A DNA stretch of 64,000 nucleotides. Source: Trissonchulus latispiculum. Taxonomy: Eukaryota; Nematoda; Enoplea; Enoplida; Ironidae. Positions 46,477 to 64,000 of this stretch are shown in pieces. Location: the NCBI GenBank assembly GCA_030248195.1, contig JASAND010006839.1, positions 62,001-126,000 on the forward strand, given 5' to 3'. Below the pieces are notes generated by a model that ran no database searches, had not been told where the DNA came from, and worked only from the letters and a program-made list of their open reading frames with translations. The first letter of the stretch is position 1; every line of letters starts with the position of its first letter. A program made the position numbers and the translations under genes.

Positions 46477-46892
46477 TTATACTTCCGTGCTGCTTTATTA
46501 TATATATACTTACTTAATTCTGCGACAGAACTTCTGTCTCTTAAAGTGTCTTCTATTTTGTTTCCTTTCCTATTTTGTAAGTATATAATTAATTGTATAT
46601 ACTCAACGCTTTCAGTTTATTTTATGACTACGTATATATATACCGGCTTATATATACATATATTTACAAATTTTATTTTACTTTCATAACGTATATATAT
46701 ATACAATATATAAATGGGCAATGCAAGATTGATAATTGGCAGCTTCTGAAAGTGTTTTAGAATAAATCGTGGAAGTGAAAAATTCTGAAAAGCATTCAAT
46801 TCCCGTTTTGGTTTTCCACTGATCGATTATACAACTCTAACTCATCTCATCTTAACTATTCTTTTTAAACATTTGAATTGCTGAATTTTCCA

Positions 46893-47157
46893 CGATTTCA
46901 AAAAATTCTTCAACTTCTGGGGGGCTGCGCCCCCCAGACCCCCCGTTTCGCACATTATCTTTGTTGCCCTTGTAGCTTGTCCTCTTTATTGCCACCATTC
47001 CTTGCATATACTTATACTATTTTACTGCAAGTTTTTCACTTCGTAAGTAATCTCCATTTTATTTGTTTAATCTTTTCAAAAGTTTGCATGACGGATTTTT
47101 TCCAATTTCAAAAAATTCTTCAACTTCTGGGGGGCGCCGCCCCCCAGATCCCCCGTG
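46893..47157. repeat. Two copies of a CTGGGGGGC/GCCCCCCAG hairpin motif
   Basis: TTTCAAAAAATTCTTCAACT followed by TCTGGGGGGC(tgc or gcc)GCCCCCCAGA and CCCCCG occurs at 46897-46947 and 47106-47156. A third copy lies at 16772-16823 inside another hAT-type element. A reverse-strand relative is at about 3480-3525. The conserved AT block plus hairpin looks like a terminal structure of another small mobile repeat. Confidence 0.7.
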
Positions 47158-47466
47158 TGCTTCTTGTGTCTATAAATTCTCCATGCTTTGCTTCACTCAC
47201 GGGATATAGTTGTTTTCCAATTGGCAAGTGAACTAACCTTTCCATACACTATATTTTCTTGTAAAAATATTTTGTTCCTGGAAAAAGCAAATTTCACCAC
47301 CACCCCCACCCCCCGGAAAAATTTGGTTACCCTCCAGAAAAATTTTTCAGCGGGCCCCCCTTTTCAAAATCCTGGATCCGCCACTGATCAGCTTTAGTAT
47401 TGTTGTTTCTGTAGAGTTCTCAGAGGCAGGCTGTTCTCGTCAATTTTTTCTCGACTGATTTCCACA

Positions 47467-47542
47467 ATGCGGAGTGCATCAGATGCTCACAAGGTTTGCC
47501 TCATCGTAATTGATGGATGGGGAATTTCCGCAGAGAAAGAAG
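47467..47542 (+). CDS. Putative first exon, cofactor-independent phosphoglycerate mutase
   Basis: The ATG at 47467 opens MRSASDAHKVCLIVIDGWGI followed by SAEKE-G. A hydrophobic strand, then I-D-G-W-G with the metal-binding Asp, then a short charged turn and Glu-Gly, matches the N-terminus of iPGM. That enzyme is a di-Mn alkaline-phosphatase-superfamily enzyme interconverting 3- and 2-phosphoglycerate in glycolysis. The frame closes soon after (TAA at 47566-47568) unless spliced. The sequence AG|GCAAGC at 47541-47548 is a good GC-type donor, leaving phase 1 (G|G for Gly). No later exon was found to 64000, so the intron would exceed 16 kb. A pseudogene fragment is the alternative. Confidence 0.6.
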
Positions 47543-47842
47543 GCAAGCTGATTCTGATTGATAATTAATATACATAGCATGTACGTATTATGTAGGGGCG
47601 CGATAGCGCCCCTACATAATATGGGTATAAAGGCGTCTGCGCGGCCCCCTGGAGACCGTGTTGGCCTGGTGCCAGCTAATTAGAGGTCCGGCGGTGGTAA
47701 AAAGGTTACCATCGTAAACAACTCGAGTAGTACTACAAGTACCACCATACTTTTGGTTCGAATTCGAAACTTCAAATTTTTGCACTAGGCGATAGTTACC
47801 GTGCGTTTGTTTTTTTTTCTCGGTGAATAACGCTTATTGGAA

Positions 47843-48030
47843 TGAAAAGACCTATCTATTTGACAATAAACACGACTTTCTATTAAACTGGACTTCAGAC
47901 AACAGACAACAGAAAAAAAGGGTAACAGAAATATATAGCAATCTTCTGACAAAAATGCAAATTAGTTTCTTTGCGTAAACAGATAGGCAAGCAGGAACAA
48001 AGTTAGTTCGTATTCAAATTAGTCTTCACA
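47843..48030 (-). repeat. 3' LTR (188 bp)
   Basis: It reads TG...CA on the plus strand. It matches the 185-bp LTR at 61577-61761, with no base substitutions by eye. The only differences are a 4-bp tata insertion in this copy and one A fewer in an A run. The NADAR-SGNH stop codon lies at 48026-48028, just inside this LTR. Confidence 0.95.
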
Positions 48031-49291
48031 CGCCCCCTCTTCGAGACGAACGGCCCCCGGACGGACCACGGCGACCAGACTGACCCATATGAGGATCAAA
48101 CCGACCATACTTGGAAATGATGGAACGCCAATCCACCTTTCCATTACCATTGGGGTACAAACGGCCAGAAAGCGTGACTTCCAGGGGACGGAGTTCAGGG
48201 AAAATAGAACACCACAACCGCCATGTTTCCCGGAACCCGGCATGGTTGAGATGAAGGCGGCGGCGATCGAGGACACGGCCGATGGGACCTCCGGAAGTAG
48301 ATAAAGCACCTGAATAGTCGGCCGGATCACACACGTGGACACGAGGTGAATCCAAAGAAGACACCTTTGACTTGATGAGGGCGCAGAATTCAGGCACGTT
48401 CGGGATGCCAGGAACAGGGAAGGGTAAGCTGACCAGGACGGAGGGATAAGAGGGACTTTCCAGCAAGACATGGATGCAGGTTTCCAGAAACTCCCAGGAA
48501 CGATGCCACATGGAAGGCTCCCGCTGGACCACGTTGATGCCACAATTGAATACGACGAAACGATAGGACTGGGGGCGATATCCATGATAAACGCAAGAAG
48601 CGACCAAATCATGGAATAAACCACCAGGGACTGGAAGGACGTCGCCACCCTCTACCGCAGCAACTTGACGGCATTGACTGTCAGAGACAATCAACACGGT
48701 CTTCGAATAGGAAGGGCCTGAACCAACGGATGGGCAGATAACCTGGCGACACAGTAAAGACTCAATATCCCAGCGGACCGAAAACCGGCCCGTGGAACAC
48801 TGTTCAGCAACCTTCATGAGAAGCTCCCCGTAAAGGTTAAACCCAGGGTATTCACCCGGCTGGCGACGTGCCAGTGCGTTAGAACGGAGACCAGCTGACC
48901 AAACGTAGTCATTAGAACCCGTAGGTACAGCAAGAAAGGTTCGCTGCCCCAAGGAAATCGGTTCCCAGATTTCATGAAGGAGTTGTTCGAAAACTGGATC
49001 ATGAGTGGCAAAGTAGACGAGAATAGCATGGTACACATCGGGAGAATGGAAAACCCATTCTGCCGACAGCGTAAGGCCAAGTTGCAAAGCAACGGATTTA
49101 CAATTATCCAGATTGGATAGAACACGCGGATCGGTTAGGAAGGCCTCACCCAACAGGAATTGTTGGTGCTGAAGAAAAGCTATATACCAGAAGGCCATAT
49201 CCACACACTCTACATGACGATCTCGAAGTAGAATGCAGCGAGGATAGGATTTGGACAGAGGGTGATCCGGACCAATTGTGATCTGTCGAGC
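48026..49291 (-). CDS. NADAR-like plus SGNH-hydrolase-like protein in the env position
   Basis: 421 codons from the acceptor at 49291 to TGA at 48026. Counting from TTG at 49300, residues 9-165 resemble the NADAR (YbiA-like) fold: HPLSKSYP, an ECVDMAFWYIAF helix where YbiA-type proteins have SEHYFQA, VYHAILVYFATH, TGSNDYVWSAGL and GFNLYGELLMKV. NADAR enzymes remove ADP-ribose-type modifications or act on NAD-related ribose linkages. The usual Glu-His is Asp-Met here, so activity is uncertain. Residues 200-365 look like an SGNH hydrolase: VLIVSDSQ, FVVFNCGIN, and RRLHLNHAGF near the C-terminus, although the Asp of the usual DxxH is displaced. A basic Arg-Gly tail overlaps the polypurine tract. 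No signal peptide or membrane segment is seen, so it is not an envelope protein. Confidence 0.7.
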   Translation of the reverse strand, partial: ARQITIGPDHPLSKSYPRCILLRDRHVECVDMAFWYIAFLQHQQFLLGEAFLTDPRVLSNLDNCKSVALQLGLTLSAEWVFHSPDVYHAILVYFATHDPVFEQLLHEIWEPISLGQRTFLAVPTGSNDYVWSAGLRSNALARRQPGEYPGFNLYGELLMKVAEQCSTGRFSVRWDIESLLCRQVICPSVGSGPSYSKTVLIVSDSQCRQVAAVEGGDVLPVPGGLFHDLVASCVYHGYRPQSYRFVVFNCGINVVQREPSMWHRSWEFLETCIHVLLESPSYPSVLVSLPFPVPGIPNVPEFCALIKSKVSSLDSPRVHVCDPADYSGALSTSGGPIGRVLDRRRLHLNHAGFRETWRLWCSIFPELRPLEVTLSGRLYPNGNGKVDWRSIISKYGRFDPHMGQSGRRGPSGGRSSRRGGV

Positions 49292-49328
49292 CTGAAACAA
49301 ACAACAAACAAAAAAACGTTATGCTAAA

Positions 49329-49987
49329 CTACAAAAACTGTGGTTCAGCACGTTTACGAGGGCGCAGATTATATTGATAGGTGGATCTAACGGGTGATGG
49401 TTGTTTGTCTGCACCGGTAGTAGGAAGAGAAAGAGCTGAAGTAGTCGAGAAGCAGTTGGAAGAAAAACTCCACCAACTAACGTTTTCATAGCAGGGCTTT
49501 AAGAGGTCATGGGAAACATATTGTTCCGCCATCCCATCAGCCAAAGATACTACTTTATAGTTTTGGCGAACGGGATCTTTGCCAACAACGCAAAAAGGAC
49601 CTTTCCACTTATGAGTAAGTTTACCTTTGACTTTGGAAGCGACTACAGGTGAGTAGACAAACACCTTGGAACCTAGGGAATACTCTCTCTCACTAAGCTT
49701 AGCATCATGGTGCTTTCGTTGAGTTGCTTGAGCATTGCAAACATTACGCTTGCCGGATTGGCGAGCAAAATAAGCATGAGCCATAGCATGAGAAGCATAA
49801 TCATCAGGATCAAGAAAACGTTGTTGAGGACATTCCTGCCCCAAACGGAAAGGAAACGTAGGTTGGCGAGCGTATACTAATTCAAAAGGACTGAATTTAG
49901 TACTCTCTTGCGTAGCTGTGTTATAGGCAAACACAACATGAGGTAAATACTTATCCCAATTGCGATGACCAGTGTCCACGTACATTT
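49329..49987 (-). pseudogene. Gypsy integrase, C-terminal part
   Basis: The segment continues the integrase after the CR1-type insertion: NWDKYLPHVVFAYNTATQES, SPFELVYARQP, then a GPY/F-like module (KLTHKWKGPFCVVGK to YVSHDLLKPCY) and a basic tail (YQYNLRPRKRAEP). These are the end of the catalytic core and the DNA-binding C-terminus of Ty3/gypsy integrases. A stop lies at 49329. The NADAR-SGNH acceptor lies 36 bases further on. Confidence 0.9.
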
Positions 49988-50602
49988 AGTAGAAAACGTT
50001 CAAAGGCGGTTTTCAAAGCGGATTCCGGGTTTGCGCAATAAAACGTATTCTGAGCGTTTGGCAATTTTGGGATTAGAAAGTTTGGAATTGCGTAGGATCA
50101 AAGCAGATCTCAATCAGTGCTTTCGCATAGTGAAAAATCTCGACAACATAGATTTTTCTGACTATTTTGCCTACCGTCAGGATGTGGGATTAAGGGGACA
50201 TAATTTAATGTTAGATTCTGTACACTGCCGAAGAAATGAGAAATTAAATTTTTTCAGTAGCAGAGTAGTTAAATTGTGGAATAACCTCCCCCTTGAAGTT
50301 GTCAAGGTTGATTCACTTGAGGCTTTTAAATCTAAACTGAAGGATATAGATTTGTCGATTTATACAAAGATCTTTTAGCATTTCTGTGGCTATTTATATA
50401 CTGCACATGTTTATACTGTTTTCACGTAGTTTGTGGATGTAGATATTAGTCTGAACTAGGTTTTATCTGATTGTTTTATATTGTTGTATGTACGGATGCA
50501 TGTAAGTAGCTGTGTATACAGTTCTTTGTATTCCTTTTCAGTAAATGTTTTACTGCGTGACCATAATCTTTACTGAATAAACCAATTGTTTGTTTGTTTG
50601 TT
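49988..50602 (+). mobile_element. CR1-like LINE 3' fragment inserted in integrase
   Basis: A 5'-truncated copy in plus orientation encodes the last about 130 residues of the CR1-like ORF2 (VENVQRRFSKRIPGLRNK to the stop at 50376-50378). The shared 3' UTR and (TTTG)n tail follow at about 50586-50602. ATTT flanks both sides (49984-49987 and 50603-50606). It splits the integrase core between the catalytic Glu region and the following helix. Confidence 0.9.
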
Positions 50603-51523
50603 ATTTTGAGCATTTGGGCTACCGTATGGTTGAAGCGCTCGACAAGCCCTTGAGATGCCGGGTGGTAGGCTGTCGACGGCTCTTGAGAACAACCTATAAG
50701 TTCCAGTACATGGCCCATTAACTTCGATAGAAAGGAAGTACCTCTGTCATGACGAAGAACCTGAGGAGCGCCATGACGTAGCACTATATGCTCAACAAAA
50801 ATCTTGGCAATTGTCAAAGATTTTTGATCAGGAAGAGCAAATGCTTCGACGTACTTAGTAAAATCATCCACAAAAACCAAGATATAGTTATTACCAGTGT
50901 CAGTCAAGGGGAAACTAACTATGTCAACCACCAAGGAATAGAAAGGATAATGAACAGCGATGGGTTTCAGGTGACTTCTGGGACTGGCAGGAGGGTCCTT
51001 ACCAGTTTGACAGAGATGGCAAGACCGGCAAAAGTCAAACACTTGCTGTCGCATTTTAGGCCAAAAGAACCTAGTCTTTATCTTATCATAAGTACGTTTA
51101 AAGCCCAAATGACCGGAGAAGGGACTCGAATGTAGCTCGTGGAGCAATCCCAAGACCTGGGTCTGCGGAATGGCAATCCGGGAGATTCCATCCCCGCAAC
51201 GAACTAAGAGCCCATTTTCAAAATGAAACGAATCGGCGACCGTTAGGATAGAAGTTTGAAGCTGAGGGTCAGCTGGTAAGGTGCCGTCTAAGAGAAACTT
51301 ACAGATAGGTCCAAAGTAAGGGTCAACTTTTTGGTCTACAAGAAAAGAAGGGTCAGTAGAAGTGCGGACATGAGTGATCTTCGAAACGGCATCTACTTCG
51401 GTTGAGAGGTCGTCCACTAGGCTAACCTGAACAGCTCTATCCACTCGAGTGCTTTCTTCTGCTAGTCGGGACATATATATAATCTGCATTAACGTGCTTA
51501 GTTCCGACTCGGTAGCGCACGTT
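50603..51523 (-). pseudogene. Gypsy integrase, N-terminal zinc finger and catalytic core
   Basis: The HHCC finger (LHSSPFSGHLG ... CRSCHLCQ) is followed by the retroviral-type core. The catalytic triad is visible: Asp in VVDIVSF, Asp in RHDRGTSF, then 35 residues to Glu in GLVERFN, the D,D-35-E spacing. Integrase inserts the cDNA. The reading is broken twice: by a frame slip in a (TA) run (51473-51482) in the RNase H-integrase linker, and by the CR1-type insertion at 50602. Confidence 0.92.
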
Positions 51524-51714
51524 TGCATGTTCAGCTTGGTTTTAACCCATTTGATTCAGAGCCATATATAATATAAATCAAGTATATTCTTATGCTTGGG
51601 GAGCTGACGTGATGATTGAATTATGCTCAGTGAAACGCCTTGTAATTTCCAGTATTTGTTTTATTATGTAAGTGGACTAAGACAAATAATATGAGTCAAA
51701 ACGCCCCAATGACA

Positions 51715-52080
51715 GCCTTCTCAGAGGCGCTGCGCAGAGGCTGCGCAGATCCTGCGCAAATTTTGTGAGCAAAAGAAAGTCCGTGTCGAGTTTAGTATAA
51801 TTGGAAAATTTCATCCCCCTAACACTTACCGTTAAAAAGTTGCACCCGCCGGCAGTTATATATGCCGGCGATGTTTTTTTTCCGGTGTCTCCGTTTTACC
51901 CTCGTATGTCACCATTTTGTAGCCTCTTTCACAGAATGTAGCGAAGTTCAGACACCTATTGCGGTATATCATCAATATATATAGGTTACTGACTTTCGAT
52001 ATATGTGGTCGCCGCCGCACCACAGTGCGCCGCAGCGCCACAGTGGCGCCACAAAGTCGGCTCAAAACGTCGAAATGGCC
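51715..52080. repeat. Fragment related to element E
   Basis: The text ctgcgcagatcctgcgcaaa, gtgtcgagtttagta, cacttaccgttaaaaagttg and ggcgatgtttttttt parallels 35590-35770. The gcgccgcagcgccacagtgg part parallels 35900-35935. It is diverged and lacks clear borders. Confidence 0.65.
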
Positions 52081-52181
52081 AAAAGTATGCCTGGGATTAG
52101 CTTCTTTCCAGCTCTTTGTGCAAATTGCAATGCTGCAAATTGCAATTGCAATTCCAGCTCTTCTATATATGTATATATCGA

Positions 52182-53002
52182 TAGTGTTGTCATGTTAGCG
52201 AAAAATCCGGGCCGGGCCGTTCCTTGTCATCCGGGCCGGGCCCGGCCCGAAGCCCGAGCCCGAAACAGGCCCGAGGCCCGGCCCGGATTTCGGGCCCGAA
52301 ACAGGCCCGGGGCCGGCCTGGATGTCGGGCCCGAAACGGGCCCGAATGGTCAAACTTAGTACAAATACTTTTGATGTAGTTTTTGCAGATAATAAACACA
52401 AATGATAGGAAATCAGTGTGAAAATAACATATGCAAAAATAATACATCGGCTTTACAAGCAATGCCTCTCCATCTGAAATAAAACTATTGTTCATTCTTG
52501 TATGTAACCTCTTCTGTTTGTTTCTTCGATTTTTATAAACGTCGCATGAATAAACGAATAGGTATAATAAACTAATGCGTCACTCACCACCCTCACATGT
52601 CATTGAAAGCATTTGAATGAAACCTATTTTGATAATTCGAGAACGGTGTCGAGCTCATGCAAAGTATATAAAAGTCCCAAAAGCAATGGTATATATATAC
52701 TAGTTTTTATTCAATACTTGATATATTATACAAAGTCGGTACTGAATGTATAAATATTTTTCAATTCGGTTGAAGTGGGAAGTTTATAGTTTCCAGGATT
52801 CTCAGCAAAATTTGGTGTTTTTCTGTTCACTTATAGCAATTTTTCCTTTGGCCCGGAAACGGCCCGGGAAAAATTCGGGCCTGTTTCGGGCCGGGCCCGA
52901 AAAAAATCCGGGCCGGGCCCAGGCCGGGGCGGTCCGATCAAATCTTGATCCGGGCCGGGCTCGGACCAGGCCCGAGCCCGAAACAGGCCCGGATGACAAC
53001 AC
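52182..53002. mobile_element. GGGCCCG-rich inverted-repeat element
   Basis: The ends AGTGTTGTCAT (52183) and ATGACAACACT (53002) are inverted. Subterminal blocks 52207-52350 and 52850-52998 are dense in gggcccg/cgggccc and cgaaacaggcccg. The flanks are tatatatgtatatatcgat and atatatgtatcgat, suggestive of a target duplication with AT slippage, but not exact. The interior is AT-rich and non-coding. Confidence 0.65.
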
Positions 53003-53492
53003 TATATATGTATCGATAGCCCACAGTCAGGACATGTCACATGCACAATATGGGTTGCCTAGGGTTTTCCCTTAGTAAATAGCAGCCGAAATTCGAACTT
53101 CGGTCATGAACGTTTTTGAGGTCACTTTTGGGTACCCTCACTTAACGGTCTGCCCTGAACGCATGGAGAGGGCCTAAGGGCTCAAACTCACAGGCTGTAA
53201 TGTCGAGATGTGTGGCTATCAACATGCAAGAATTTGGGTCTCTGCGACTTTCCTGTGAGTCAGGGCGGGGTGATTTTTTTTGTTAAAATTTCGGGTGATT
53301 TTGTTAAGCTTGCTATACTGTACTTACAGAATCAAACTCAGAAACCAATCTGGTACTGTAGGGTATACTTCTAGACTTGCTCTTTCTAATGGGCTATACT
53401 AGGCAGCTGTAGCTGTTATGGTTGGGGAGTAGGCGACCATGTTTTCCCCCCTCTTTTCCGGCATGTTTTCCCCCACCTGACTATAATTAAAT

Positions 53493-53870
53493 TAGGGTTT
53501 TTTATTTCGCTGCCGATCTTTGGGTCAAATGGCCTCAACGACTAAAATTTTTTAGGCCATCTTCCAAAGAACTTAGGCCATCTAATTTTCTATTTTTAGG
53601 TTTGTGCGCATTGTTCGCATTATTGTGAATGGTTTATATTACGTAGTAAGTACAAACGGAGAACGTAACTAGCTGGAACAGTCCAGAAATTGTTATGAAG
53701 CACAAATTAGATATACGTATATACCAATATTTTCACTTACAGATCAATGAAATGTGACTGAGTTTTTGTTGTAAAATGTAGGCCAGCTGGCCGCAACGGT
53801 CACAATTGTTTAGGCTATGTGCTCTACAATTTAGGCCATGGCCTTAGCTCCGTATGGCCTAAATTAAAAC
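53493..53870 (-). mobile_element. Second GGCCAT-rich miniature element
   Basis: This is a reverse-orientation relative of 18185-18560. It shares gggttttttatttcgctgcc, aatggcctcaacg, aggccatctaattttc and the gtgcgcattgttcgcattattg block. It is nested in the 51538-55707 insertion. Confidence 0.65.
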
Positions 53871-55698
53871 CTTAAATCAAATGTCAGTTTTAGCTTAAAT
53901 TTAATCGTTTTAATTGTTTATATAAATCGCATGGACGAAGTTTATTGCTGTTTATTTAGTAATTAAATTAATTTAGTACGGAGTTTTTAAAAATATTGAA
54001 AAAATTTCATTTAAAATTAAAAAATCCAGATGAAGCTAGCCAAAAAAGAGAAATTTCGTTTATATATATACGTACGTAATCCAACTAGGACAAATTGTTT
54101 AATTCAACTTTCTTTGAAACGTGTGGAAAATACTTTTTGGCTTATGTTTAATGGATGAAAATTATATACGTATATATATATATATATTGCAACAATGCAG
54201 AAAACATTTATATACATTTTACTCAGAAAACTCCAATAACAAAGTAATTATAATTATATTATACGTATATATATGCTAAGGTAACCCATGGGCAAAATTT
54301 AAAAGCCGATGTTCTCAACAAGTCCAGCTTTCTAGCTGATGTTACTTATGTTCATAGCACGGTTTTTTGCGTACAATACTGCGTATTTACGCAGTCGAGC
54401 TTAAAAATACGCAGTCAAAAACAAAAATACGCACCAAAATACGCAGCCGAAATATTCGGCAGCAAGAATTTCCAGAGTGCTCTAAATTAATTTCTTGAGA
54501 CAATTCAACGTAGTTTCCTGGTGAGGGGTCAATGCGTTTCGGCGCATTGATCTGGCGGCGAGCTTCCGCCACCAGGAGGGTCTTGCTTATGCGAATGCAA
54601 GGACGCCATATTGATATCGGGCAATATGGTATCCGGCCAATGAAGAGAAACTGAGGCTGGGCCCTGACAGCGGCTCCTTACGCCTGTAGCCAGGGGTCTC
54701 AATGAGGTCTCTGGCTACTTACGGTGTAGGCCCCACTATGTACTGAAGCCCACCAGTACATAGTGTTATCCCGGTAAGACAGGCTTCGGTGATTGTGGTC
54801 CCTGATAATCACTGAACCTCTCTTACGTTCCCGATCCCCAACTCTCCCCCTCACTCTGGGCTAAAATTATCTATATAATGGGAGGAGGGGAACCAAAGTT
54901 CCGTGCCAGAGTCACGAATCAATCAAAATATGGGAGGGTCCTGTGCCTGTCCCCAAACGCTATTGGGCTCTTATACCCATCGGACAAACGACCCCAGCTC
55001 CCGGGGGGATTTTCTTAGGCTTGTAGGAAAATTTTGAGCTTTCAGCTCGAATTGTGTGCTTTACTCGTGGGGGTGTAATTATGGCTCCACTCTGCAAAAT
55101 TCAAAATTCTCCCGTCCCTCCTGTGCATATTCCAGATATATAGGAGCAGATAGGGCATATCACTGCTGACGAAGATTACAGACCGGAAAAGAACCAGTGG
55201 AGAACTAGTTGATAGCCTGATACCACGCCTTTTCTATGGTAAAAGGCACCGGACAGACCTTGGGTTACCCATCATATTTGCTTACACTACCACAGGAAAC
55301 AGGAAATAGGTAAAACCCGACCAGTCAGCAGGGACAGGATGCCAGACCCTGCTGACAACAACATCACTTGCTTCAGGTATGCCAACCCGCTATCTGGTGA
55401 CACCTTCGAGGATGAGTAAGGACGGTCGGAGGTCGACCAGGACAGGTCAGTACCGCCTCAGTGAGGTGACCGCACCGGTACACTTCACTAGGTGCCAATG
55501 TTTAGCCTTCTGTGCTGACTTCAATGGTTTGTCCAGCTTGCCGGCACATAAAAGTGTGGGGGTGACTCTCTGGTATAAAGCTTCCTACATCCAATGTGGA
55601 TAACCCCGACGCAGTCGGAGTTATTCACCTTGGTTGTCTCTATGGAGAGGCCTCGCGACAGCTCACCAGCTAGCGGGCGGGAAGTGAATTCTACCTAC

Positions 55699-58600
55699 CT
55701 ACCTACCTGCATGTTCAGCTTGTAACATTGTATACCAGCGAGCTAAGCGGCCAGTACAATTTTTGCCTTTCAAAATGTATATCAAAGGTTTGTGATCAGT
55801 TACCAACTGAAAAGGCATCCCATGAATATATGGTCGAAATACTTGCAAAGCATAGATAAGAGCTAGAGCTTCACGCTCAGTCGTGCTATAGTTGCGTTCA
55901 CTGCGAGTTAACGTACGGCTGGCAAAAGCTATTGGATGTTCCTGATGATCGCTTTGAATTTGTGAAAGAACAGCTCCAAGTCCAGTACCACTAGCATCAG
56001 TTTGCACAATAAACTCTTTCTGGAAATCAGGAAAAACCAGTATCGGAGCCGAAGTCAATTTTTGCTTCAAGGATTCAAACGCGATCGAACACTCATGCGT
56101 CCACCGGAAACGGTTCTCTTTTCGTAACATAGAATTAAGTGGACCCGCCAAGGTAGAGTAGTTCTTAATAAAACGGCGATAGTATCCACAAAGCCCCAAA
56201 AACTGGCGCAATTGGCGAACATTACTTGGAGCCTTAGCATCACGAATAGAGCGAACCCGCTCAGGATTTGGTTTTAAACCATCAGGAGTAACGACATGAC
56301 CTAAATACTCAACAGAATCCTTAGCGAATTCACACTTGGACAGTTTCAATTTCAAATCATGTCGTCTCAAACGGTCAAACACCTGTTGCAGATCTCTTAA
56401 ATGGTCGTCAAATGTGCGAGACATAATCAAGATGTCGTCTAGATAAACGAGACAGTTATGGCCTTGTAATCCGGAAAGAACACAGGCCATCAATCGTTGA
56501 AATGTAGCCGGAGCATTTGTCAATCCGAATGGCATCACGGTGAACTGGTATAAGCCATCGTGAGTAAGAAAGGCTGTTTTCGGCTGAGAAGATTTATCCA
56601 GAGGTACTTGCCAATATCCGGACTTTAAATCAAGAGCGGAAAAGTACCTCATCCGACCTAGGGAATCCAATATGTCATCAATGCGTGGTAAAGGAAAAAC
56701 GTCCTTGACAGTAATATCATTCAGCTTGCGGAAGTCAACACAAAATCGCCAACTACCGTCTTTCTTGCGAACAAGAACGACTGGCGATGCCCACGGCGAA
56801 TCGGAAGGTTCGATGACGCCTGCAGCCAACATTTTAGCAAGTTCCTCCGAAATTATTTTCCTCTGGGAAAATGGAACCCTTCGCAATGGTTGTTTAATCG
56901 GGACATGAGTACCGGTATCAATGACATGTTTGACACCTTTTGCCTGACCCAACTCGTTGTCGTCGGTCGCAAACATATCACAATTCTGCTCCAAAAATTG
57001 AAGCAGCAAGTTCACTTGCGTTGCCGATAATCGCGATCTATTGATGTTAACATTCCTTAATTTTTCTGGTCGGAAAGTGTTAACTCGCGAAGCCAGGTGT
57101 TCGTCCGAGCACGTAGCCACTTCTGTGGTTTCGTCCAAGGGACTAACTGAGCCCATGGAGCTGTGTTGATGCAAGACAACGTCGGAAACTGAAAAATTAA
57201 GGAGCATCACCGGGAAAACCCCATCAGCAGGTGCTATTACAGCTCTAGCGGCAAGAATACCTTTCTCCGCAAATCGGTCAGAGCTAGGATCAAACAAGGA
57301 TGATTGTCCAAGGCATGCGCCTTGTTCAACTCGACACTGCACAATCATGCGAGAGCGAGCCGGAATAGTGACGGTTTCCAGAAGACTGGCTGGATACGTA
57401 GCGTTAACAGAATTTATAGCCTGGATTGGAAGTCCAAGATGTTGCATTATTACATCGGATAGACCCCACTGATGTAATATGTCTTGTCCGATAATACAAT
57501 CATGGGAATAACTGTCAGGAATTAAGGTCATTCGGTGCCGAATAGTTTTACTACCAACCGAAACGTCTGCATAATAGGAACCAATCAAGTTTAGAGGTGA
57601 GCCATCCAAAACAACCGCTTGTACACCTGGAGGAAGTATATCTTCTTTACGCGGTTGAATAATAGACTCTTTGACTAAACTGATTTGAGCTCCCGTATCA
57701 ATCAAAGCTTTCACAGAACGAGCATCGACTGTTGCTGTGACAATTATACGCTGTGCGGCACTGGAACTACTAAGTGAACCAACCACCATAGGGTCAGAGC
57801 GTCCAGCATACCCTGCAGGCGACCAAGAAGACCAAGGCTGGCCACGGACTATGCACTTTCTATTGGAACAATAGTTTCGAACAGATTTAAACAGCTCACT
57901 GCTCCGACATAATTGATTAATATCAGCGATCAGAATTAAAGCTTTCTTAGCACGTGTAAGCGCTACGTTCAAGCGACGTTTATCCTCCAGAAAACCCGAG
58001 GATGGAGCACCCGCTCGAACAAAGCTGACGATCACAAAATCCTGTTCATTGCCTTGGAAGCCATCTACAGTTGACACGGACACTTCCGGAAACTTGTCTT
58101 GGAGTAAAGTAGAAATTACCTGTTTCTGTGCACTGTACGGGGTAATTACGCTAATTTGAGAGCCCTTGGCAACGCTCTTTAAAACTAAAGCAGTGACAGA
58201 AGCTAAAACAGCGTCTGCCTCAATAGGATTATAAAGACTGGTGCCATTTTGCTCACGAAAACTTCGAGATTTTAGATCCCATAGCATAAGAGGCTTCCCG
58301 GACGGAAGATCGCAGAAGGCAGAATGCGTAGAGCTATGGCGAAGTCGACCATTGTAAAAACGAGAGTTGCTGAATTCGGCGATAATTCCTGGCATTCGAT
58401 ACTGCTCAGTCAACAAATGTGGTTCCAGGTTTTTAGCAGCAAATTCCAAAATGGAAATGTCCAGTCCGTCCCGTTTTGCGTCAAGGGAAAGAACCGTTGG
58501 ACGAAGCTGTTTATGGTCACCGATTACCACCAACTGTTGAATACTATGAGTGACCAAAGGTATCATCGCTTCCGGTACCATGCACTGAGAACCCTCATCA

Positions 58601-60510
58601 ATAAGAACAAGATCAAAATGTAACCGCGCTTTTTCTAATAAGCGACGCCCTGAACTGTTACATGTGCAGCAGATTATCTTGGATGTCTTAAGGACTTGCA
58701 TTTCAAGTCGCTCCCATCGACGAAGAAATGCCTTTAGCTGCTTATCGGTTAATTCGTTCAACATAAACGACTCAAAGCGAGCCTGAAAGTCAGGTCCACC
58801 TTTTGCCAGAGCTGCCTGTCCAAGAGAGACCTGACCAAGGGAATCAGAAACATAAGGATCTATACTGTCAGGATAAACACGAATAAAGCTGGACTTAAAA
58901 GCTTCTGGTAGTTCGCGCAGTAATCTTCTGGCGATAATATCTAAAGCTGTATTAGATGCAGTGCATACCAGAATCTTAGCATCAGGTTGCAATGTCAGCT
59001 TGCTCAAAATTATTGCCATGGCAGTAGTTGTCTTACCAGTACCAGGGGGTCCTTGGATAAGGGTTAACTGTTGGGTGAGAGCTTTAAGGACTGCCCCTTT
59101 CTGCGAAGTGTTTAGCGGAAAATCCACCAAATCAGCTAGCTCTACTGATATGCACTCTTGCGTATTTGAATTCAGTTGCTGCCTAGTGCCGTCAAAAATG
59201 CTGAGGCAAGGGTTAAAATCTGGAGCTAAATCGACGAACGTTTCTAATGCTTTAGTATGGCGGCAGAAGGGATCATAATCCGGATTGGGCAGAGCCACAA
59301 CTTTAGAAAGACGCCAAATACTCGTAGAGGTGGTATCTAAATAGACAGATGGCGAAGATTCATCGTCTTCATCCTCCATACCGCTTTCCTGAAGCTGATT
59401 TGTAGTATTGCCCTCGGTCGGTACAATTAACTCTAGACAGTAATAACTGTCTGGCAACGCTTCGATGACAGTTCCCGTAACGGCCACAGTGCTATCGTCG
59501 GGATCTACTAATCTAACGCTATCACCTACGCTGAGAATGCTTAATTGAAGTTTAGCAAATTTCCGAGCTTTAGAAACATCCCAATTAATATCTACCAAAC
59601 GAGCACTATCTAAGGCTCGTTGTCGCTGAGTTAAAAATTCCATCTCGAGCAACGGGGAATATTTTTGCAACAACGTATTACGTTCAGTAGGAGAACACGA
59701 AGCTTCTGCAGACAGACTACCCAAAACGGGAGTGTCAGCAGCAGGTGGATTAAGCTTCCTACGCTGAATTGAGTCATATGCATCTTTAATATCTGCTTCT
59801 GGAGTTGAGTCCGATAACTTGCCCGCAAAGTCCAGTAGCTGCGCACGACGCTGAAAAGGAGCAAAATTGATAATATGACGTTCAAGAAAGTCATTCCCTT
59901 CGTGCAAGGTAACCTGACTCAACAAATACAAGAGGAGCCTCTGATACAAGCGTACTTTGACAACCTCTTTAGTAGGACCAAGAGCCTCGCGAATTTCACC
60001 ATCAAAACGAATGCGAGCAACTACAAACGAAGGGCGATTCGACATTCGCTTGAAATTCAAAAACTGAATTTGCTTTAGCAATGTCGCAGCACCCGTGATA
60101 GATGAGCCAGTGAAAAGCAAGCTAAAGGAGGGAAAGCGAATGGCATCATTGACGAGTCCAATTGGTGAAGAGTTATCTTTAAATTGCGGAACAGGGACAT
60201 CAAAACGTGACTGATTTTCCGCAGTAACATCATTTGATTGTACATCCACAACGTTGACTGAATTGCCAAAACTAGAATCACTTCGTTGTTGACGCTGTGG
60301 TTGTTCACTCCCACGGCGACGGCCTCTAGTGCCAGACCCTCCTCGCCGAAGAGAAAAACACTGACTTTTAGTATGTCCAGGTTTACGACAATGAGTGCAG
60401 AAAGACTCCGAAAATGCAGGAGCTTTCTGATTTTGTAAATGAAAACACTGAGACTTGATGTGCCCTTCCTTACGACAATAAGTGCAAAACGGACGAGAAG
60501 TCGATGGCAT
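55699..60510 (-). CDS. Gypsy polyprotein: zinc knuckles, UPF1-like helicase, protease, RT, RNase H
   Basis: One open frame of 1,603 codons. Two CCHC knuckles (C9-C22, C38-C51) with an Arg/Gly-rich linker are followed by an unassigned region (60-285). A complete SF1 UPF1-like helicase spans about 285-890: 1B-like beta region, Walker A GPPGTGKT (487), DEGS (638), IGDHKQLRPT (663), EQYRMPG (702), STVDGFQG (813), RRLNVALTRAKK (845). Then come aspartic protease DTG (938) with IIGQD (1007), RT with YLDD (1356), and RNase H with TDASG (1504), the TEREALAL Glu (1547) and TDHKP (1571). The frame ends where the LINE-type insertion begins. An in-frame stop 9 bases upstream of the ATG excludes a longer version. 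The helicase gene is intact and in frame, with all core motifs, which is unusual for Ty3/gypsy. No capsid domain precedes it. Confidence 0.95.
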   Translation of the reverse strand: MPSTSRPFCTYCRKEGHIKSQCFHLQNQKAPAFSESFCTHCRKPGHTKSQCFSLRRGGSGTRGRRRGSEQPQRQQRSDSSFGNSVNVVDVQSNDVTAENQSRFDVPVPQFKDNSSPIGLVNDAIRFPSFSLLFTGSSITGAATLLKQIQFLNFKRMSNRPSFVVARIRFDGEIREALGPTKEVVKVRLYQRLLLYLLSQVTLHEGNDFLERHIINFAPFQRRAQLLDFAGKLSDSTPEADIKDAYDSIQRRKLNPPAADTPVLGSLSAEASCSPTERNTLLQKYSPLLEMEFLTQRQRALDSARLVDINWDVSKARKFAKLQLSILSVGDSVRLVDPDDSTVAVTGTVIEALPDSYYCLELIVPTEGNTTNQLQESGMEDEDDESSPSVYLDTTSTSIWRLSKVVALPNPDYDPFCRHTKALETFVDLAPDFNPCLSIFDGTRQQLNSNTQECISVELADLVDFPLNTSQKGAVLKALTQQLTLIQGPPGTGKTTTAMAIILSKLTLQPDAKILVCTASNTALDIIARRLLRELPEAFKSSFIRVYPDSIDPYVSDSLGQVSLGQAALAKGGPDFQARFESFMLNELTDKQLKAFLRRWERLEMQVLKTSKIICCTCNSSGRRLLEKARLHFDLVLIDEGSQCMVPEAMIPLVTHSIQQLVVIGDHKQLRPTVLSLDAKRDGLDISILEFAAKNLEPHLLTEQYRMPGIIAEFSNSRFYNGRLRHSSTHSAFCDLPSGKPLMLWDLKSRSFREQNGTSLYNPIEADAVLASVTALVLKSVAKGSQISVITPYSAQKQVISTLLQDKFPEVSVSTVDGFQGNEQDFVIVSFVRAGAPSSGFLEDKRRLNVALTRAKKALILIADINQLCRSSELFKSVRNYCSNRKCIVRGQPWSSWSPAGYAGRSDPMVVGSLSSSSAAQRIIVTATVDARSVKALIDTGAQISLVKESIIQPRKEDILPPGVQAVVLDGSPLNLIGSYYADVSVGSKTIRHRMTLIPDSYSHDCIIGQDILHQWGLSDVIMQHLGLPIQAINSVNATYPASLLETVTIPARSRMIVQCRVEQGACLGQSSLFDPSSDRFAEKGILAARAVIAPADGVFPVMLLNFSVSDVVLHQHSSMGSVSPLDETTEVATCSDEHLASRVNTFRPEKLRNVNINRSRLSATQVNLLLQFLEQNCDMFATDDNELGQAKGVKHVIDTGTHVPIKQPLRRVPFSQRKIISEELAKMLAAGVIEPSDSPWASPVVLVRKKDGSWRFCVDFRKLNDITVKDVFPLPRIDDILDSLGRMRYFSALDLKSGYWQVPLDKSSQPKTAFLTHDGLYQFTVMPFGLTNAPATFQRLMACVLSGLQGHNCLVYLDDILIMSRTFDDHLRDLQQVFDRLRRHDLKLKLSKCEFAKDSVEYLGHVVTPDGLKPNPERVRSIRDAKAPSNVRQLRQFLGLCGYYRRFIKNYSTLAGPLNSMLRKENRFRWTHECSIAFESLKQKLTSAPILVFPDFQKEFIVQTDASGTGLGAVLSQIQSDHQEHPIAFASRTLTRSERNYSTTEREALALIYALQVFRPYIHGMPFQLVTDHKPLIYILKGKNCTGRLARWYTMLQAEHAGR

Positions 60511-60624
60511 TTTGTCTTACTATCAGCGGTCAGCAAAAGAAGAAGCCAAAATTAGTAATACAGAAATGCGTCAAAAACTGACACAATATGAGATAGGTCC
60601 ATGAGTCGCTGATATTTAGAAAAT

Positions 60625-61419
60625 AGGACAGATATCTCTGCCCCTCTATCAAAACCGGCACTAGCATCAGGAGCTCTGTAACTGGCTTGGAATATCGTCT
60701 GAAGGGCCATTTTGACTGTACAAGCAAGGGGACTGTATATCTGGCGGAGATTAAGGGGTGCCCCTCCCAATATGTTGGAGAAAGCGGAAATCCTCTCTCC
60801 ATCAGGTTTAACAACCACAGGTGTGACATTCGAAAAATGGATGCTAGTAAACCTCTTTCGTGTGATTTCAGGAACCATACCCATACATTAGATCAATTAT
60901 TAGTAACTGTATTGGATTTTTCTGACGACGAAACTACTCGGAAGAAGAAAGAAAAGTGGTGGATTAGTCAACTATTTTCTGACCATCCTTTTGGAATCAA
61001 CTGGGAGCACGTTCTCCGTCACAACAAATCCCCACCCCCCGGGTCCAGGTTTACTAGCATTCATTTGGACTCTGTCGACAACAACAACATCAATAACAGT
61101 GGTCCCGACCCTCCCGGCAGTTCCGGTCCTCCGGTCCCCCCAGTCCCTGCCTCCCTGTCTCCTACCGACCCTCCCGGGAATTTCGGTCCTCCGGTCCCCC
61201 CAGTTCTTTCCCGTCTGACCCCTGGAGCCCCAACCCTAGAGAACTTTGAAATTTTCCTTCCCTCCCGAAATTGGATCCCCCGCTATCTGACCCCTCAGGA
61301 ACGACAGCAGCGTGTGATGAATCGTCTGAAGAAGATGCCCCCGGTGGAGCATCGAAACCGGTTACGTGATTAAGGTTGGTCTGACTTTGGGTGTCCACGT
61401 TTGATTTTCATTTCTCTAA
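60625..61419 (+). mobile_element. Penelope-like element fragment, TSD CTGATATTTAGAAAAT
   Basis: A 795-bp insertion in plus orientation within the gypsy leader, flanked by the exact 16-bp repeat CTGATATTTAGAAAAT (60609-60624 and 61420-61435). It contains only the C-terminal part of a Penelope-type ORF plus a short 3' region, so it is 5'-truncated. Confidence 0.9.
60687..61373 (+). pseudogene. GIY-YIG endonuclease domain of a Penelope-like element
   Basis: The segment GTVYLAEIKGCPSQYVGESG, then RFNNHRCDIRK, HTHTLDQLLVTVLDF, EKWWISQLFSDHPFGINWE follows the Penelope-element GIY-YIG layout (VYL..QYVGE..R.NNHR..I). That domain nicks the target DNA for retrotransposition. A Pro/Gly-rich tail with two tandem SGPPVPPV-type repeats follows, then a basic end (QQRVMNRLKK). 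The reverse transcriptase that should precede it is absent, so the copy cannot move on its own. Confidence 0.88.
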
Positions 61420-61489
61420 CTGATATTTAGAAAATGTTAGCTATTAAAGCAGTACCAAAAACTGGCACACAAAAAGATTATTTACTTAC

Positions 61490-61543
61490 CGGAATGGAAA
61501 AATTAAGCCTGGCTGCGCCAGAGTAATTATGTCTAACAGACAT
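61490..61543 (-). CDS. Leader mini-exon supplying a start codon (putative)
   Basis: Thirty-four bases inside the 5' LTR, an ATG (61543-61541) opens 18 codons that end exactly at a strong donor, CCG|gtaagtaaa (61490|61489). The phase is 0. The acceptor before the NADAR-SGNH ORF (ttgtttgttgtttgtttcag, ending 49292) is also phase 0. Splicing the two would give the downstream ORF an AUG, which it otherwise lacks near its N-terminus. If unspliced, the frame stops four codons after the border and acts as a short upstream ORF. Confidence 0.6.
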
Positions 61544-61576
61544 AATTACTAATAATCAAAAATGTGGAACCTCCAA

Positions 61577-61761
61577 TGAAAAGACCTATCTATTTGACAA
61601 TAAACACGACTTTCTATTAAACTGGACTTCAGACAACAGACAACAGAAAAAAAAGGGTAACAGAAATAGCAATCTTCTGACAAAAATGCAAATTAGTTTC
61701 TTTGCGTAAACAGATAGGCAAGCAGGAACAAAGTTAGTTCGTATTCAAATTAGTCTTCACA
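61577..61761 (-). repeat. 5' LTR (185 bp)
   Basis: The direct partner of 47843-48030 and the upstream LTR for the minus-strand element. Near identity of the LTRs shows recent insertion. It is short for a gypsy element. The termini are imperfect inverted repeats (TGTGAAGAC and GTCTTTTCA on the minus strand). Confidence 0.95.
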
Positions 61762-61984
61762 TTGGAAATGCATTTTACGGCTAAGTGTTGGAACGATGTG
61801 GGCATTTTGGCATCATACTACTATTATATGTTTTTAGACAGGATCCCCCCATGCAACTTTTTTTGGTCATTTTGGCACCTGGCCAATTTTGGCTCTGTGC
61901 CAAGGTCCCAAAGTCGGACTTTCGCTATTTTTCGCAAATTTTGGTCACACTTTTCTAGAACAGGGTAGAAGTTGGAGAGGTCGG

Positions 61985-63430
61985 CGTTTTTCGTTTTTCA
62001 GCCTTGGGCGTTTTTCGGCCTTGGGGTGGTACCCATATATAGTAAATCAGGGTTGCTGAAAACGATGAGCATACTGCCGATACCGCGCGAAGTGACCACT
62101 GGTCAGCATAGCTCCCTTGGTTCCTCGCCCAGGGTCAAAGTTGGGAAAACTCCCTCTAAACAGCGTTTTTCGGCGTTTTGGTCTGGGGCGTACATAGTAA
62201 ATGTATATGTACATGTATACAGTAAATCGACTACGCTCGTTTCAATGGGCGTATCGCCGAAACCGACGGAAGTGACCACTGGTCACTACAGCTAATGGGG
62301 CCTATTGACCACTGGTCAAACGGCCTAAAACTGCGTTTTTCGGCGTTTTGGTCGGGGGCATATATAGTAAATCGACTACGCTTGTTTCAATTGGCATATC
62401 TCTGAAACCGACGGAAGTGACCACTGGTCAAACAGAGTATTTGTTACTGGGCCCCCCCCCCCGAAATTGGCCTCCCCCCCGAAAATGCCTTCCCCCTTCG
62501 AAATCGCCCCCCCCGGGATTTTGGTCTGCCCCCTTAATGAGGTCTACATTTTTTCCAAAAATGGTCAAATTTTCAAAAATTTTCCTGCGTCGCCGGAGAT
62601 TTTTTCGTAAAAATGGCTATTTATACCTTAAATCCTGGCATTTTTGAGAATGTTTTGTGTTTCACCATGCAAAATACGCCAAAAAATACCATTTTTGGCT
62701 CATTTTGGCAAAAACTCCCCCCCGAAAATTTCTTCCCCCCCCCCCCGGAAAAAATCCCTAAAAAATACCCTGGTCAAACGGCCCAAAACAGCATTTTTCG
62801 GCGTTTTGGTTGGGGGGCATATATAGTAAATCGACTACCCTCGTTTCAATGGGCATTTTGCCGAAACCGACGGAAGTGACCACTGGTCACTACTTCCTAG
62901 GAGTCCTATTGACCACTGGTCAAACGGCCTAAAACTGCGTTTTTCGGCGTTTTGATCGGGAGCACATATAGTAAATCGACTACGCTCGTTTCAATGGGCA
63001 TATCGGCGAAACCGACGGAAGTGACCACTGGTCACTACAGCCTATGGGGCCTATTGACCACTGGTCAAACGGCCTAAAACTGCGTTTTTCGGCGTTTTGG
63101 TCGGGGGCATATATAGTAAATCGCTACGCTCGTTTCAATGGGCATATCGCCGAAACCGACGGAAGTGACCACTGGTCACTACAGCCTACGGGGCCTATTG
63201 ACCACTGGTCAAACGGCCTAAAACTGCGTTTTTCGGCGTTTTGGTCGGGGGTATATATTGTAAATCGACTACACTTCTTTCAATGGGCATATTGCCGAAA
63301 TTGAGGAAAGTGACCAGTGGTCACTACGGTCTATGGGGCCTATTGACCAGTGGTCAAACCCCTTAATACAGCGTTTTTCGGAGTTTTATTGGGGGCATAT
63401 ATTGTAAATCGACTACGCTCGTTTAGCATG
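61985..63430. repeat. 145-bp minisatellite of element C
   Basis: Units of 144-146 bp (starts of cggcgttttgg at 62799, 62945, 63090, 63234; relatives at 62171, 62341 and 63379) each contain GTGACCACTGGTCAC and TGACCACTGGTCA dyads, atatatagtaaatcgactac and gaaaccgacggaagtgacc. The first unit is fused to the ggtacccatatatagtaaat module shared with the GAACCAGTT family. One unit is interrupted by an inserted element (62433-62772). Confidence 0.88.
62433..62772. mobile_element. Miniature element with CAG(A/G)GTATT ends, TSD GTCAAA
   Basis: The ends are CAGAGTATTTGTTA (62433) and TAAAAAATACCCTG (62772). An exact 6-bp duplication GTCAAA lies at 62427-62432 and 62773-62778. The interior has C-runs and matches the element at 4738-5094 (reverse strand). 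Confidence 0.8.
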
Positions 63431-63524
63431 GCACTGTTCAAGCTCCTTGTATCCATTTCCGCATTGCTGGAAAGGGATCCTTTAAAATGACAGAAGGACA
63501 AGAAATAAAAATGCTCCTCTGGAG

Positions 63525-63947
63525 AAAAATACTATTTTTTGAATATCTAGGCAATGGTACTTAGCAAGTTTATGTTTTTTTTCCGAATTTCGATCTGGTT
63601 CGATTTTTATAGATGGTCAAAAATGGAAAAAATAGCGTTTTTGGACACCTTCAGGCTGAAAAATTTCTAAGTCCGAAAATTTGAAAATAGTCTAAAAACG
63701 GGCAAAAACAGCGTTTTTCGGCCCCGGGGTGATAGTAAATCGGGGTCGCTGAACACGATGAGCATAGTGCCGACACCGTATCTCGCCTGGTTCATCTGGT
63801 TCAACTGGTTCAAAGTTGAACCAGTTCCTGGTTCGAGCTACTGGAGATAGCTAGAAGGCTGAAATTTTGCATACAAAGGTTATTGGGCATGGGAAATTCA
63901 CTGGTGGTGTTACTTTGGTGATTCGACCCATGGCTGGCCAGATCTGG
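63525..63947 (+). mobile_element. Truncated Helitron-like element D
   Basis: 63525-63780 matches the AT-rich module of elements A and B (atatctaggcaatggt, gatggtcaaaaatgg, cggggtcgctgaacacgatg). 63785-63947 holds a single GAACCAGTT-type unit. Similarity stops at 63947. The 5' terminal hairpin is missing. A palindrome, GTTCAACCCGGGTTGAAC, follows at 63974-63991. Confidence 0.7.
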
Positions 63948-64000
63948 GGCCGATGTTATCAAAAGCGGGTTGAGTTCAACCCGGGTTGAACCCATTTTCG

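What the first reader, a model, noticed from the sequence alone, without database searches (positions are those of the whole stretch)
55699..60510. Ty3/gypsy polyprotein with a complete UPF1-like helicase between nucleocapsid and protease
The sequence shows one unbroken 1,603-codon frame in which CCHC knuckles are followed by a full superfamily 1 helicase (Walker A, DEGS, GDHKQLRP, QYRMPG, VDGFQG, RRLNVALTRAKK) and then protease, RT and RNase H. Ty3/gypsy Gag-Pol normally goes straight from nucleocapsid to protease. The region before Walker A resembles the beta-barrel insertion of UPF1. UPF1 and MOV10-type helicases act on retroelement and nonsense-decay RNA, so a captured copy could unwind genomic RNA, help reverse transcription, or block host decay. 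That role is inference.
Basis: partly seen in the sequence, partly recalled or inferred. Interest (0 to 1): 0.93.

Follow-up and report, generated by a model that had tools for sequence, protein, structure and literature searches.

The report
Retrotransposons carrying a UPF1-like RNA helicase
A group of virus-like jumping genes in this unnamed eukaryote's genome carries, inside its main protein, an RNA-unwinding enzyme related to the cell's own UPF1, a kind of tool that HIV is known to borrow from its host rather than encode.

Summary
Confirmed and extended. The 1,603-codon frame (55699-60510, minus strand) is part of an LTR-flanked Ty3/gypsy element (47841-61761).

It is not a one-off. Helicase-protease-RT in this order occurs at 19 of the 20 loci first fetched and at two of seven more: about 12 divergent lineages, one with a single 2,403-codon frame and identical LTRs. 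One unnamed public protein (P0002) shares it. RT and helicase trees largely agree, pointing to one capture and vertical descent. Window against its nearest copy, the helicase shows 10 nonsynonymous of 30 changes (P about 1e-5): purifying selection. It is nearest UPF1, unlike the virus-derived helicases published from insect retrotransposons.

Most likely role (inferred, about 0.5): a particle-borne dsRBD-helicase that remodels genomic RNA for reverse transcription. Shielding RNA from host defence is the main rival. A third ORF (NADAR-like plus SGNH-like) follows integrase. Eight open-access literature searches found no earlier report. Host and wider distribution are unknown.

The parts
47841..61761 (-). 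whole LTR retrotransposon insertion with nested inserts; outer flanks carry CCAA (or TTCCAA, depending on where the LTR is taken to end)
61575..61761 (-). 5' LTR, begins TG; PBS-like box TGGAGGTTCCAC at 61564-61575
   Evidence: 97.4% to the 3' LTR, 0 mismatches and 2 indels in 191 columns
47841..48030 (-). 3' LTR; PPT-like box GAAGAGGGGGCG at 48031-48042
55699..60510 (-). open frame of 1,603 codons, remnant of a longer Gag-Pol
60358..60486 (-). two CCHC zinc knuckles (residues 9-22, 38-51)
   Evidence: read from the sequence; zf-CCHC E 0.0052 below cut-off
59917..60108 (-). predicted dsRNA-binding domain (residues about 135-198)
   Evidence: profile against PDB; helix-strand-strand-strand-helix in the model; no Pfam match
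59131..59658 (-). region ahead of motif I resembling UPF1 stalk and 1B (residues about 285-460)
   Evidence: collinear but weak profile match; low-confidence strands
57796..59130 (-). UPF1-like SF1 helicase core (residues 461-905)
   Evidence: AAA_11 and AAA_12, PDB, fold, motifs
57469..57741 (-). aspartic protease (residues 924-1014)
   Evidence: gag-asp_proteas
56293..56772 (-). reverse transcriptase (residues 1247-1406)
   Evidence: RVT_1
55720..56028 (-). RNase H (residues 1495-1597)
   Evidence: RT_RNaseH
51539..55707 (.). nested insertion that ends the frame; 15-bp duplication at its edges
   Evidence: alignment with L006
50476..51528 (-). integrase, zinc-binding and core domains, interrupted by the insert below
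   Evidence: Integrase_H2C2 9.4e-20, rve 1.1e-11
49988..50602 (.). nested insert that splits the integrase (4-bp duplication)
   Evidence: alignment with L012
49329..49985 (-). integrase C-terminal part
   Evidence: collinear with integrase of other copies in tblastn; no Pfam match
48026..49318 (-). ORF3, NADAR-like first half and SGNH-like second half
   Evidence: homologous ORFs in eight other loci; sub-threshold Pfam
60626..61420 (.). nested insert upstream of the gag remnant (16-bp duplication)
   Evidence: alignment with L006

Best explanation
Identity (shown): the frame belongs to a clade of Ty3/gypsy LTR retrotransposons that took up a UPF1-like SF1 helicase, with a dsRBD-like domain ahead of it, between nucleocapsid and protease, and has kept it in frame. 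Mechanism (inferred): as part of Gag-Pol the module enters the particle with the genomic RNA. The dsRBD and zinc knuckles hold structured RNA; the ATP-driven helicase melts RNA structure or protein-RNA contacts, helping primer annealing and DNA synthesis by RT. The element would thus encode a service that HIV-1 obtains from packaged host helicases. Whether the protease frees the helicase is unknown.
For: Same helicase-PR-RT order at 19 of 20 loci and at L037, L038; single 2,403-codon frame in L007 with 187 of 187 identical LTR positions; P0002. RT tree: 22 helicase-bearing rows against 22 others on one branch, 100/98; helicase and RT trees share 7 of 9 clades. All helicase motifs kept in 13 of 13 retroelement rows. 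Purifying selection, window against L006: omega 0.15, P 1.5e-6 to 2.4e-5. UPF1 best by sequence and fold. dsRBD profile matches. Analogy: HIV-1 packages RHA, which has dsRBDs and a helicase and aids reverse transcription (PMC3484045, passages).
Confidence: 0.55

Rival explanations
1. Counter-defence: the dsRBD-helicase (perhaps with the NADAR-like ORF3) protects element RNA from the host, by unwinding or masking dsRNA that would feed RNA interference, or by interfering with UPF1-type RNA surveillance.
For: A dsRBD-like domain suits dsRNA masking. Virus-derived helicases of insect retrotransposons weakly suppress RNA silencing in plants, according to PMC6338049. UPF1 acts in RNA decay (PMC3484045).
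Against: It sits inside Gag-Pol and not in a separate early protein, and descends with RT over all lineages sampled. UPF1's CH domain, through which UPF1 contacts partners (recalled), was not found.
Confidence: 0.3
2. The helicase came from an RNA virus, as in the published insect retrotransposons, and not from a cellular UPF1-like gene.
Against: AAA_12 scores 160 bits, UPF1 leads in sequence and fold. A two-pattern scan of viral contigs gave 10 loci at 25-39% identity in their best segments, none plainly nearer than UPF1.
Confidence: 0.08
3. Passenger: a host gene piece caught by chance, without function for the element.
For: Captured host pieces are known in retroelements (recalled). Some copies are broken.
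Against: Motifs kept in 13 of 13 rows, purifying selection, trees that agree; the helicase core is better kept than the protease.
Confidence: 0.03
4. The window locus is a frame domesticated by the host.
For: It stayed open although gag is deleted and the 3' part is interrupted.
Against: LTRs with 0 mismatches in 191 columns, and matching flanks: a young insertion that need not have decayed; a 98% copy lies elsewhere.
Confidence: 0.02

Closest known systems
Virus-derived SF1 helicase domains in insect retrotransposons (PMC5563155, passages; PMC6338049, parts 1 and 2 of 4)
   Same: An SF1 helicase captured by retrotransposons and kept with full motifs.
   Different: Those are of RNA-virus origin, in LINE elements, with two fusions to Ty1/Copia pieces (Aedes aegypti, Leptopilina boulardi). 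Here the helicase is UPF1-like, in Ty3/gypsy, between nucleocapsid and protease, and follows a dsRBD-like domain.
Ty3/gypsy (Metaviridae) Gag-Pol
   Same: LTRs, CCHC knuckles, PR-RT-RNase H-IN order.
   Different: About 800 extra residues (dsRBD-like domain and helicase) between nucleocapsid and protease, and an ORF3 with NADAR-like and SGNH-like halves.
Cellular UPF1 (yeast NAM7, human UPF1)
   Same: Best sequence and fold matches over the helicase core.
   Different: No CH domain found; fused to retroelement proteins; dsRBD-like domain added.
Host RNA helicase A (RHA/DHX9) packaged by HIV-1 (PMC3484045, passages)
   Same: dsRBDs plus a helicase acting beside Gag/NC on genomic RNA: an analogy of function.
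   Different: A DExH-type host enzyme supplied in trans; here an SF1 helicase is encoded in cis.
Accessory ORFs of other retroelements: GDSL ORF3 in bdelloid LTR elements (PMC5408684, passages) and NADAR in Ectocarpus Gypsy and oyster Tx1 LINE elements (PMC12477816, passages)
   Same: Similar accessory domains as in ORF3 here.
   Different: Here both halves lie in one ORF after integrase, in helicase-bearing elements.

Membership tests
Ty3/gypsy LTR retrotransposon (Metaviridae) | Two LTRs and a target-site duplication | tested here: met
   (duplication read from the flanks)
Ty3/gypsy LTR retrotransposon (Metaviridae) | PR-RT-RNase H followed by integrase | tested here: met
   in one frame in L007; in the window the integrase is split by inserts
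Ty3/gypsy LTR retrotransposon (Metaviridae) | Gag with capsid and CCHC | tested here: inconclusive
   CCHC present; Retrotrans_gag E 4.7e-4 in L006 below cut-off, PNMA 0.011 in L007; deleted in the window copy
UPF1 / UPF1-like SF1 helicases | SF1 motifs I to VI | tested here: met
   13 of 13 retroelement rows, motif II as EE in P0002
UPF1 / UPF1-like SF1 helicases | Closer to UPF1 than to other SF1 helicases | tested here: inconclusive
   Bit scores UPF1 209, IGHMBP2 162, Sen1 147, DNA2 109, ZNFX1 98; Z UPF1 34.4, IGHMBP2 33.3; fork with one IGHMBP2-like row unresolved; MOV10, SETX and HELZ2 not in the tree
UPF1 / UPF1-like SF1 helicases | Stalk and 1B region ahead of motif I | tested here: inconclusive
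   E 0.0019, probability 14%; low model confidence
UPF1 (orthologue) | CH zinc domain (UPF1_Zn_bind) | tested here: not met
   absent from the Pfam list of the 1,603 residues at E up to 0.01; so UPF1-like, not UPF1
Virus-derived SF1 helicases of insect retrotransposons | Best match is a viral SF1 helicase | tested here: not met
   Viral_helicase1 23.7 bits (over its cut-off of 21) against AAA_12 160; no nearer viral contig
dsRNA-binding domain (dsRBD) | Alpha-beta-beta-beta-alpha fold and dsRBD profile similarity | tested here: met
   caveat: domain-level E values are weak
dsRNA-binding domain (dsRBD) | Match to a Pfam dsRBD model | tested here: not met
   7 pieces, no dsRBD family at E up to 10
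NADAR and SGNH/GDSL (ORF3) | Match over the curated Pfam cut-off | tested here: not met
   NADAR in 3 of 7 ORF3 proteins (best 26.4 bits, cut-off 35.1), GDSL in 4 of 7 (best 23, cut-off 32.9); conserved DSQ and HLNH in the 6 aligned rows; no PDB profile match. Called 'like' only
All of the above | Enzyme activity | not testable with these tools
   needs purified protein

The most novel reading that the evidence does not exclude
A whole clade of reverse-transcribing elements carries its own replicative dsRBD-helicase, captured once from a cellular UPF1-like gene and packaged as part of Gag-Pol, so that genome remodelling for reverse transcription is done in cis and not with borrowed host helicases.
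Probability: 0.45. Interest if true: 0.85.

Novelty: new variant of a known kind. Interest (0 to 1): 0.78.

Why it matters
HIV-1 is stated to encode no helicase and to rely on host ones (PMC3484045). An element lineage that has kept a UPF1-like helicase inside its particle protein over deep divergence would make it directly testable what an encoded helicase does for reverse transcription. It would also show that a core enzyme of cellular RNA surveillance can be captured by the very elements it may act on. In another Ty3 family of this genome the stretch right before the protease looks like a viral fusion glycoprotein instead, which hints that this slot tolerates cargo.

Tried and rejected
Rejected readings: one chimeric copy or an assembly error; a nested host pseudogene (motifs; selection); ZNFX1 as nearest kin (ZNFX1-type proteins L032, L033, L035 fall far outside). 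A viral donor is not excluded but not favoured.

Led nowhere: naming the host. The Rfam SSU request (RF01960) did not complete; a telomere-repeat pattern gave 0 matches, which says little because that tool skips simple repeats. Pfam found no dsRBD. The ORF3 profile found nothing in the PDB at E up to 1. Rfam found nothing at gathering scores in 46000-64000. VIA-align listed no dsRBD chain, its rows being filled by helicases. The dsRBD alone could not be folded. Searches for an earlier report: (in one search the term AAA_12 matched citation codes only); two searches asked about NADAR and about UPF1 in HIV-1. Open-access papers only; no supplements. PMC10799480 (passages) concerns fungal DNA-transposon helicases and did not bear on this.

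Rows dropped or missing: L024 left out of the RT tree (96 columns); the row for L012's helicase-bearing element has 291 of 415 columns and a very long branch; L008 left out of the 1B alignment; of P0121-P0140, 15 of 20 were used in the RT tree (P0128, P0129, P0130, P0134, P0136 not fetched). L012's plus-strand element counts as without helicase although what precedes its protease is not its own sequence.

Full report
The observation. The window is contig C4657, 62001-126000, of an unnamed 734-Mb assembly, G000. The minus-strand frame 55699-60510 is present, 1,603 codons, uninterrupted.

The element around it. On the minus strand the frame lies between two near-identical LTRs (61575-61761 and 47841-48030; 97.4%; 0 mismatches and 2 indels in 191 columns). 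A PBS-like box follows the 5' LTR, a PPT-like box precedes the 3' LTR, and both outer flanks carry CCAA or TTCCAA. Compared with the 98%-identical copy L006 (contig C13505), the window copy lacks 1,276 bp of gag just upstream of 60512, has a nested insertion at 51539-55707 with a 15-bp duplication and another at 60626-61420 with a 16-bp duplication; a further insert at about 49988-50602 splits the integrase, judged against L012. So the start and the stop of the 1,603-codon frame are products of damage, and the original product was a longer Gag-Pol. L006 in turn lacks most of the integrase.

Not a one-off. Searching the own genome with the whole protein gave 38 matches from 29 scored candidates of 7,136, so counts are lower bounds. 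I fetched 20 loci: 15 chosen by that similarity and the five best of the 150 AAA_12 places. In 19 of 20 (L006-L024) helicase, protease and RT follow each other on one strand; the NC/dsRBD segment was also hit in 16 of these 19 and integrase in 16 of 19. L025 is a helicase alone, without PR or RT in its 10 kb. Of seven more AAA_12 places, L037 and L038 are further helicase-bearing elements; L032, L033 and L035 are ZNFX1-type proteins and L036 a fragment alike, by NF-X1-like cysteine repeats as I recognise them; L034 is a different SF1-like ORF. Together there are about 12 lineages; between them only L013 and the L021-L024 group reached 66% in the helicase (73%; L037 and L038, fetched later, judged from the tree). 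L007 holds one 2,403-codon open frame with CCHC, helicase, protease, RT and integrase; its LTR pair is identical at 187 of 187 positions, so this lineage moved recently. In the protein database one protein, P0002 (2,530 aa, source 'lgn', unnamed), has the same order. Of the 21 and 68 proteins listed in two further searches, P0002 alone shows AAA_11/12 together with RT in the precomputed domains. Whether P0002 is from another species cannot be told.

One capture, vertical descent. An RT/RNase H tree of 44 rows separates 22 helicase-bearing rows from 22 without by one branch, support 100/98. In the helicase tree 13 retroelement rows are one side of a branch (88/81; the lone helicase L025 falls inside); seven UPF1 rows form another (94/87); ZNFX1 lies outside; one long IGHMBP2-like row leaves the fork between them unresolved. 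On 11 shared rows, 7 of 9 clades agree between the two trees; the conflicting ones have bootstrap 42 to 83.

Selection. Between the window and L006 the helicase core shows 20 synonymous and 10 nonsynonymous changes (omega 0.15); the same pair gives 0.14 for the 1B region, 0.11 for NC plus dsRBD, 0.095 for protease and 0.012 for RT/RNase H. A binomial test against the neutral share of nonsynonymous changes gives P 1.5e-6 (no transition bias) or 2.4e-5 (bias of 3) for the helicase. Other close pairs are less clear: omega in the helicase runs from 0 to 0.81, and in RT/RNase H up to 0.88, as expected if copies decay after insertion. In other lineages the helicase core is 41-50% identical to the window's, RT/RNase H 50-63%, protease 27-39% and NC/dsRBD 27-35%. 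Motifs I, III, IV, V and VI are kept in 13 of 13 retroelement rows, and motif II as DE in 12 and EE in P0002.

What kind of helicase. Against the PDB the best sequence matches are yeast and human UPF1 (208.7 and 198.4 bits), then IGHMBP2/SMUBP-2 (162), Sen1 (147), DNA2 (109), ZNFX1 (98) and aquarius (86). An AlphaFold model of residues 70-915, made with P0002 and 24 UPF1-type proteins (mean pLDDT 61.7, pTM 0.53, the core mostly 60-93), has UPF1 chains as the first 13 Foldseek rows. By Z, UPF1 (34.4, rmsd 4.5, 490 aligned) and IGHMBP2 (33.3, rmsd 3.9, 466 aligned) are nearly tied. Since UPF1 sequences were in the alignment, the model leans that way. The CH zinc domain of UPF1 was not found. The stretch ahead of motif I aligns to UPF1 stalk and 1B with E 0.0019 but only 14% probability, and its model confidence is low. 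Viral_helicase1 passes its Pfam cut-off (23.7 against 21 bits) but is far behind AAA_12 at 160; a two-pattern scan of viral contigs found 10 loci, 25-39% identical in their best segments.

Residues about 100-230, between zinc knuckles and helicase, are conserved across lineages. A profile of 11 rows finds dsRBD proteins in the PDB: ADAR2 E 4.4e-6, ILF3 6.6e-5; the first 10 and in all 13 of 16 hits are dsRBD proteins (a 6-row profile gave 6 of 7). The best E sums two weak domain matches; single-domain chains reach 0.0098. The model shows helix-strand-strand-strand-helix at protein residues about 135-198, pLDDT 57-81 by blocks. Pfam alone gives nothing. The module reads NC - dsRBD - UPF1-like helicase - PR.

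ORF3. Nine loci in which I saw an ORF of 300 codons or more after integrase, the window included (48026-49318), encode homologous proteins: all 36 pairs align at E 1.3e-8 or better. This is not a count over all loci. The first half resembles NADAR (3 of 7 tested, best E 9.2e-6) and the second SGNH/GDSL hydrolases (4 of 7, best 1.3e-4), all below Pfam cut-offs; DSQ and HLNH are invariant in 6 rows; there is no PDB profile match. GDSL ORFs in bdelloid LTR elements (PMC5408684, passages) and NADAR in Ectocarpus Gypsy and oyster Tx1 elements (PMC12477816, passages) are published.

How it probably works. Shown: the module is encoded in frame in Gag-Pol, is shared by divergent lineages and is under constraint in the family of the window. 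From known biology: Gag-Pol is packed with the RNA (recalled); HIV-1 encodes no helicase and uses host ones, of which RHA, with two dsRBDs and a helicase core, is packaged via Gag and aids tRNA annealing and reverse transcription, while MOV10 inhibits it (PMC3484045, abstract and passages); a role of UPF1 in HIV-1 reverse transcription is mentioned in PMC4693258 (one passage). Inferred: the element's dsRBD-helicase does such remodelling in cis. The main rival is counter-defence against RNA interference or RNA surveillance; the place inside Gag-Pol speaks for the particle role, the dsRBD fits both.

Novelty. Helicases in retrotransposons are known, but those described in the papers I saw come from RNA viruses, in LINE elements and in two fusions with Copia pieces (PMC5563155, passages; PMC6338049, parts 1 and 2 of 4). 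Eight searches aimed at an earlier report of a UPF1-like helicase in Ty3/gypsy found none; they cover open-access full texts only. I file it as a new variant of a known kind: a Ty3/gypsy element with a captured helicase of new origin and place.

Noticed in passing
L026-L031 (contigs C659, C430, C16210, C14537, C2195, C20039); proteins P0131, P0164, P0180, P0185, P0188: Another Ty3 family: the stretch right before the protease, in the same open frame in 5 of 6 loci, looks like a viral fusion glycoprotein (Monjiviricetes_fusion E 2.4e-5 in L026, below its cut-off). The five database proteins list PF24664 with RT; in P0131 it lies between CCHC and protease as I read it; P0124 and P0126 look alike by eye.
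   Followed up: partly
48026-49318 (-) and homologous ORFs in L007, L009, L011, L017, L019, L020, L021, L023: ORF3 with a NADAR-like and an SGNH-like half after integrase in helicase-bearing elements.
   Followed up: partly
L025 4375-6564 (contig C9857): A lone helicase frame of 730 codons, about 40% identical to the window's, without PR or RT in the 10 kb fetched; it falls inside the retroelement clade of the helicase tree. It could be a domesticated or truncated copy, or a cellular relative.
   Followed up: partly
L034 (contig C2551) and other places with roughly 50-72 bits and frames near 1,500 codons: A different family of long SF1-helicase-like ORFs; some contigs hold two places on opposite strands (C2551, C12387). 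Nature unknown.
   Followed up: no
L032, L033, L035 (contigs C2345, C18579, C20678): ZNFX1-type proteins in long frames without introns over 1,000-1,860 codons; C2345 and C18579 each hold two AAA_12 places on opposite strands.
   Followed up: no
60687-61373 (+): ORF inside the nested insert upstream of the gag remnant; looks to me like the GIY-YIG end of a Penelope-like element (recalled); Pfam gives nothing at E up to 0.01.
   Followed up: no
62231-63395 and 38797-44464: Tandem arrays: units spaced about 145 bp beside the element, and a long array of about 148-bp units sharing sequence with 63529-63947.
   Followed up: no
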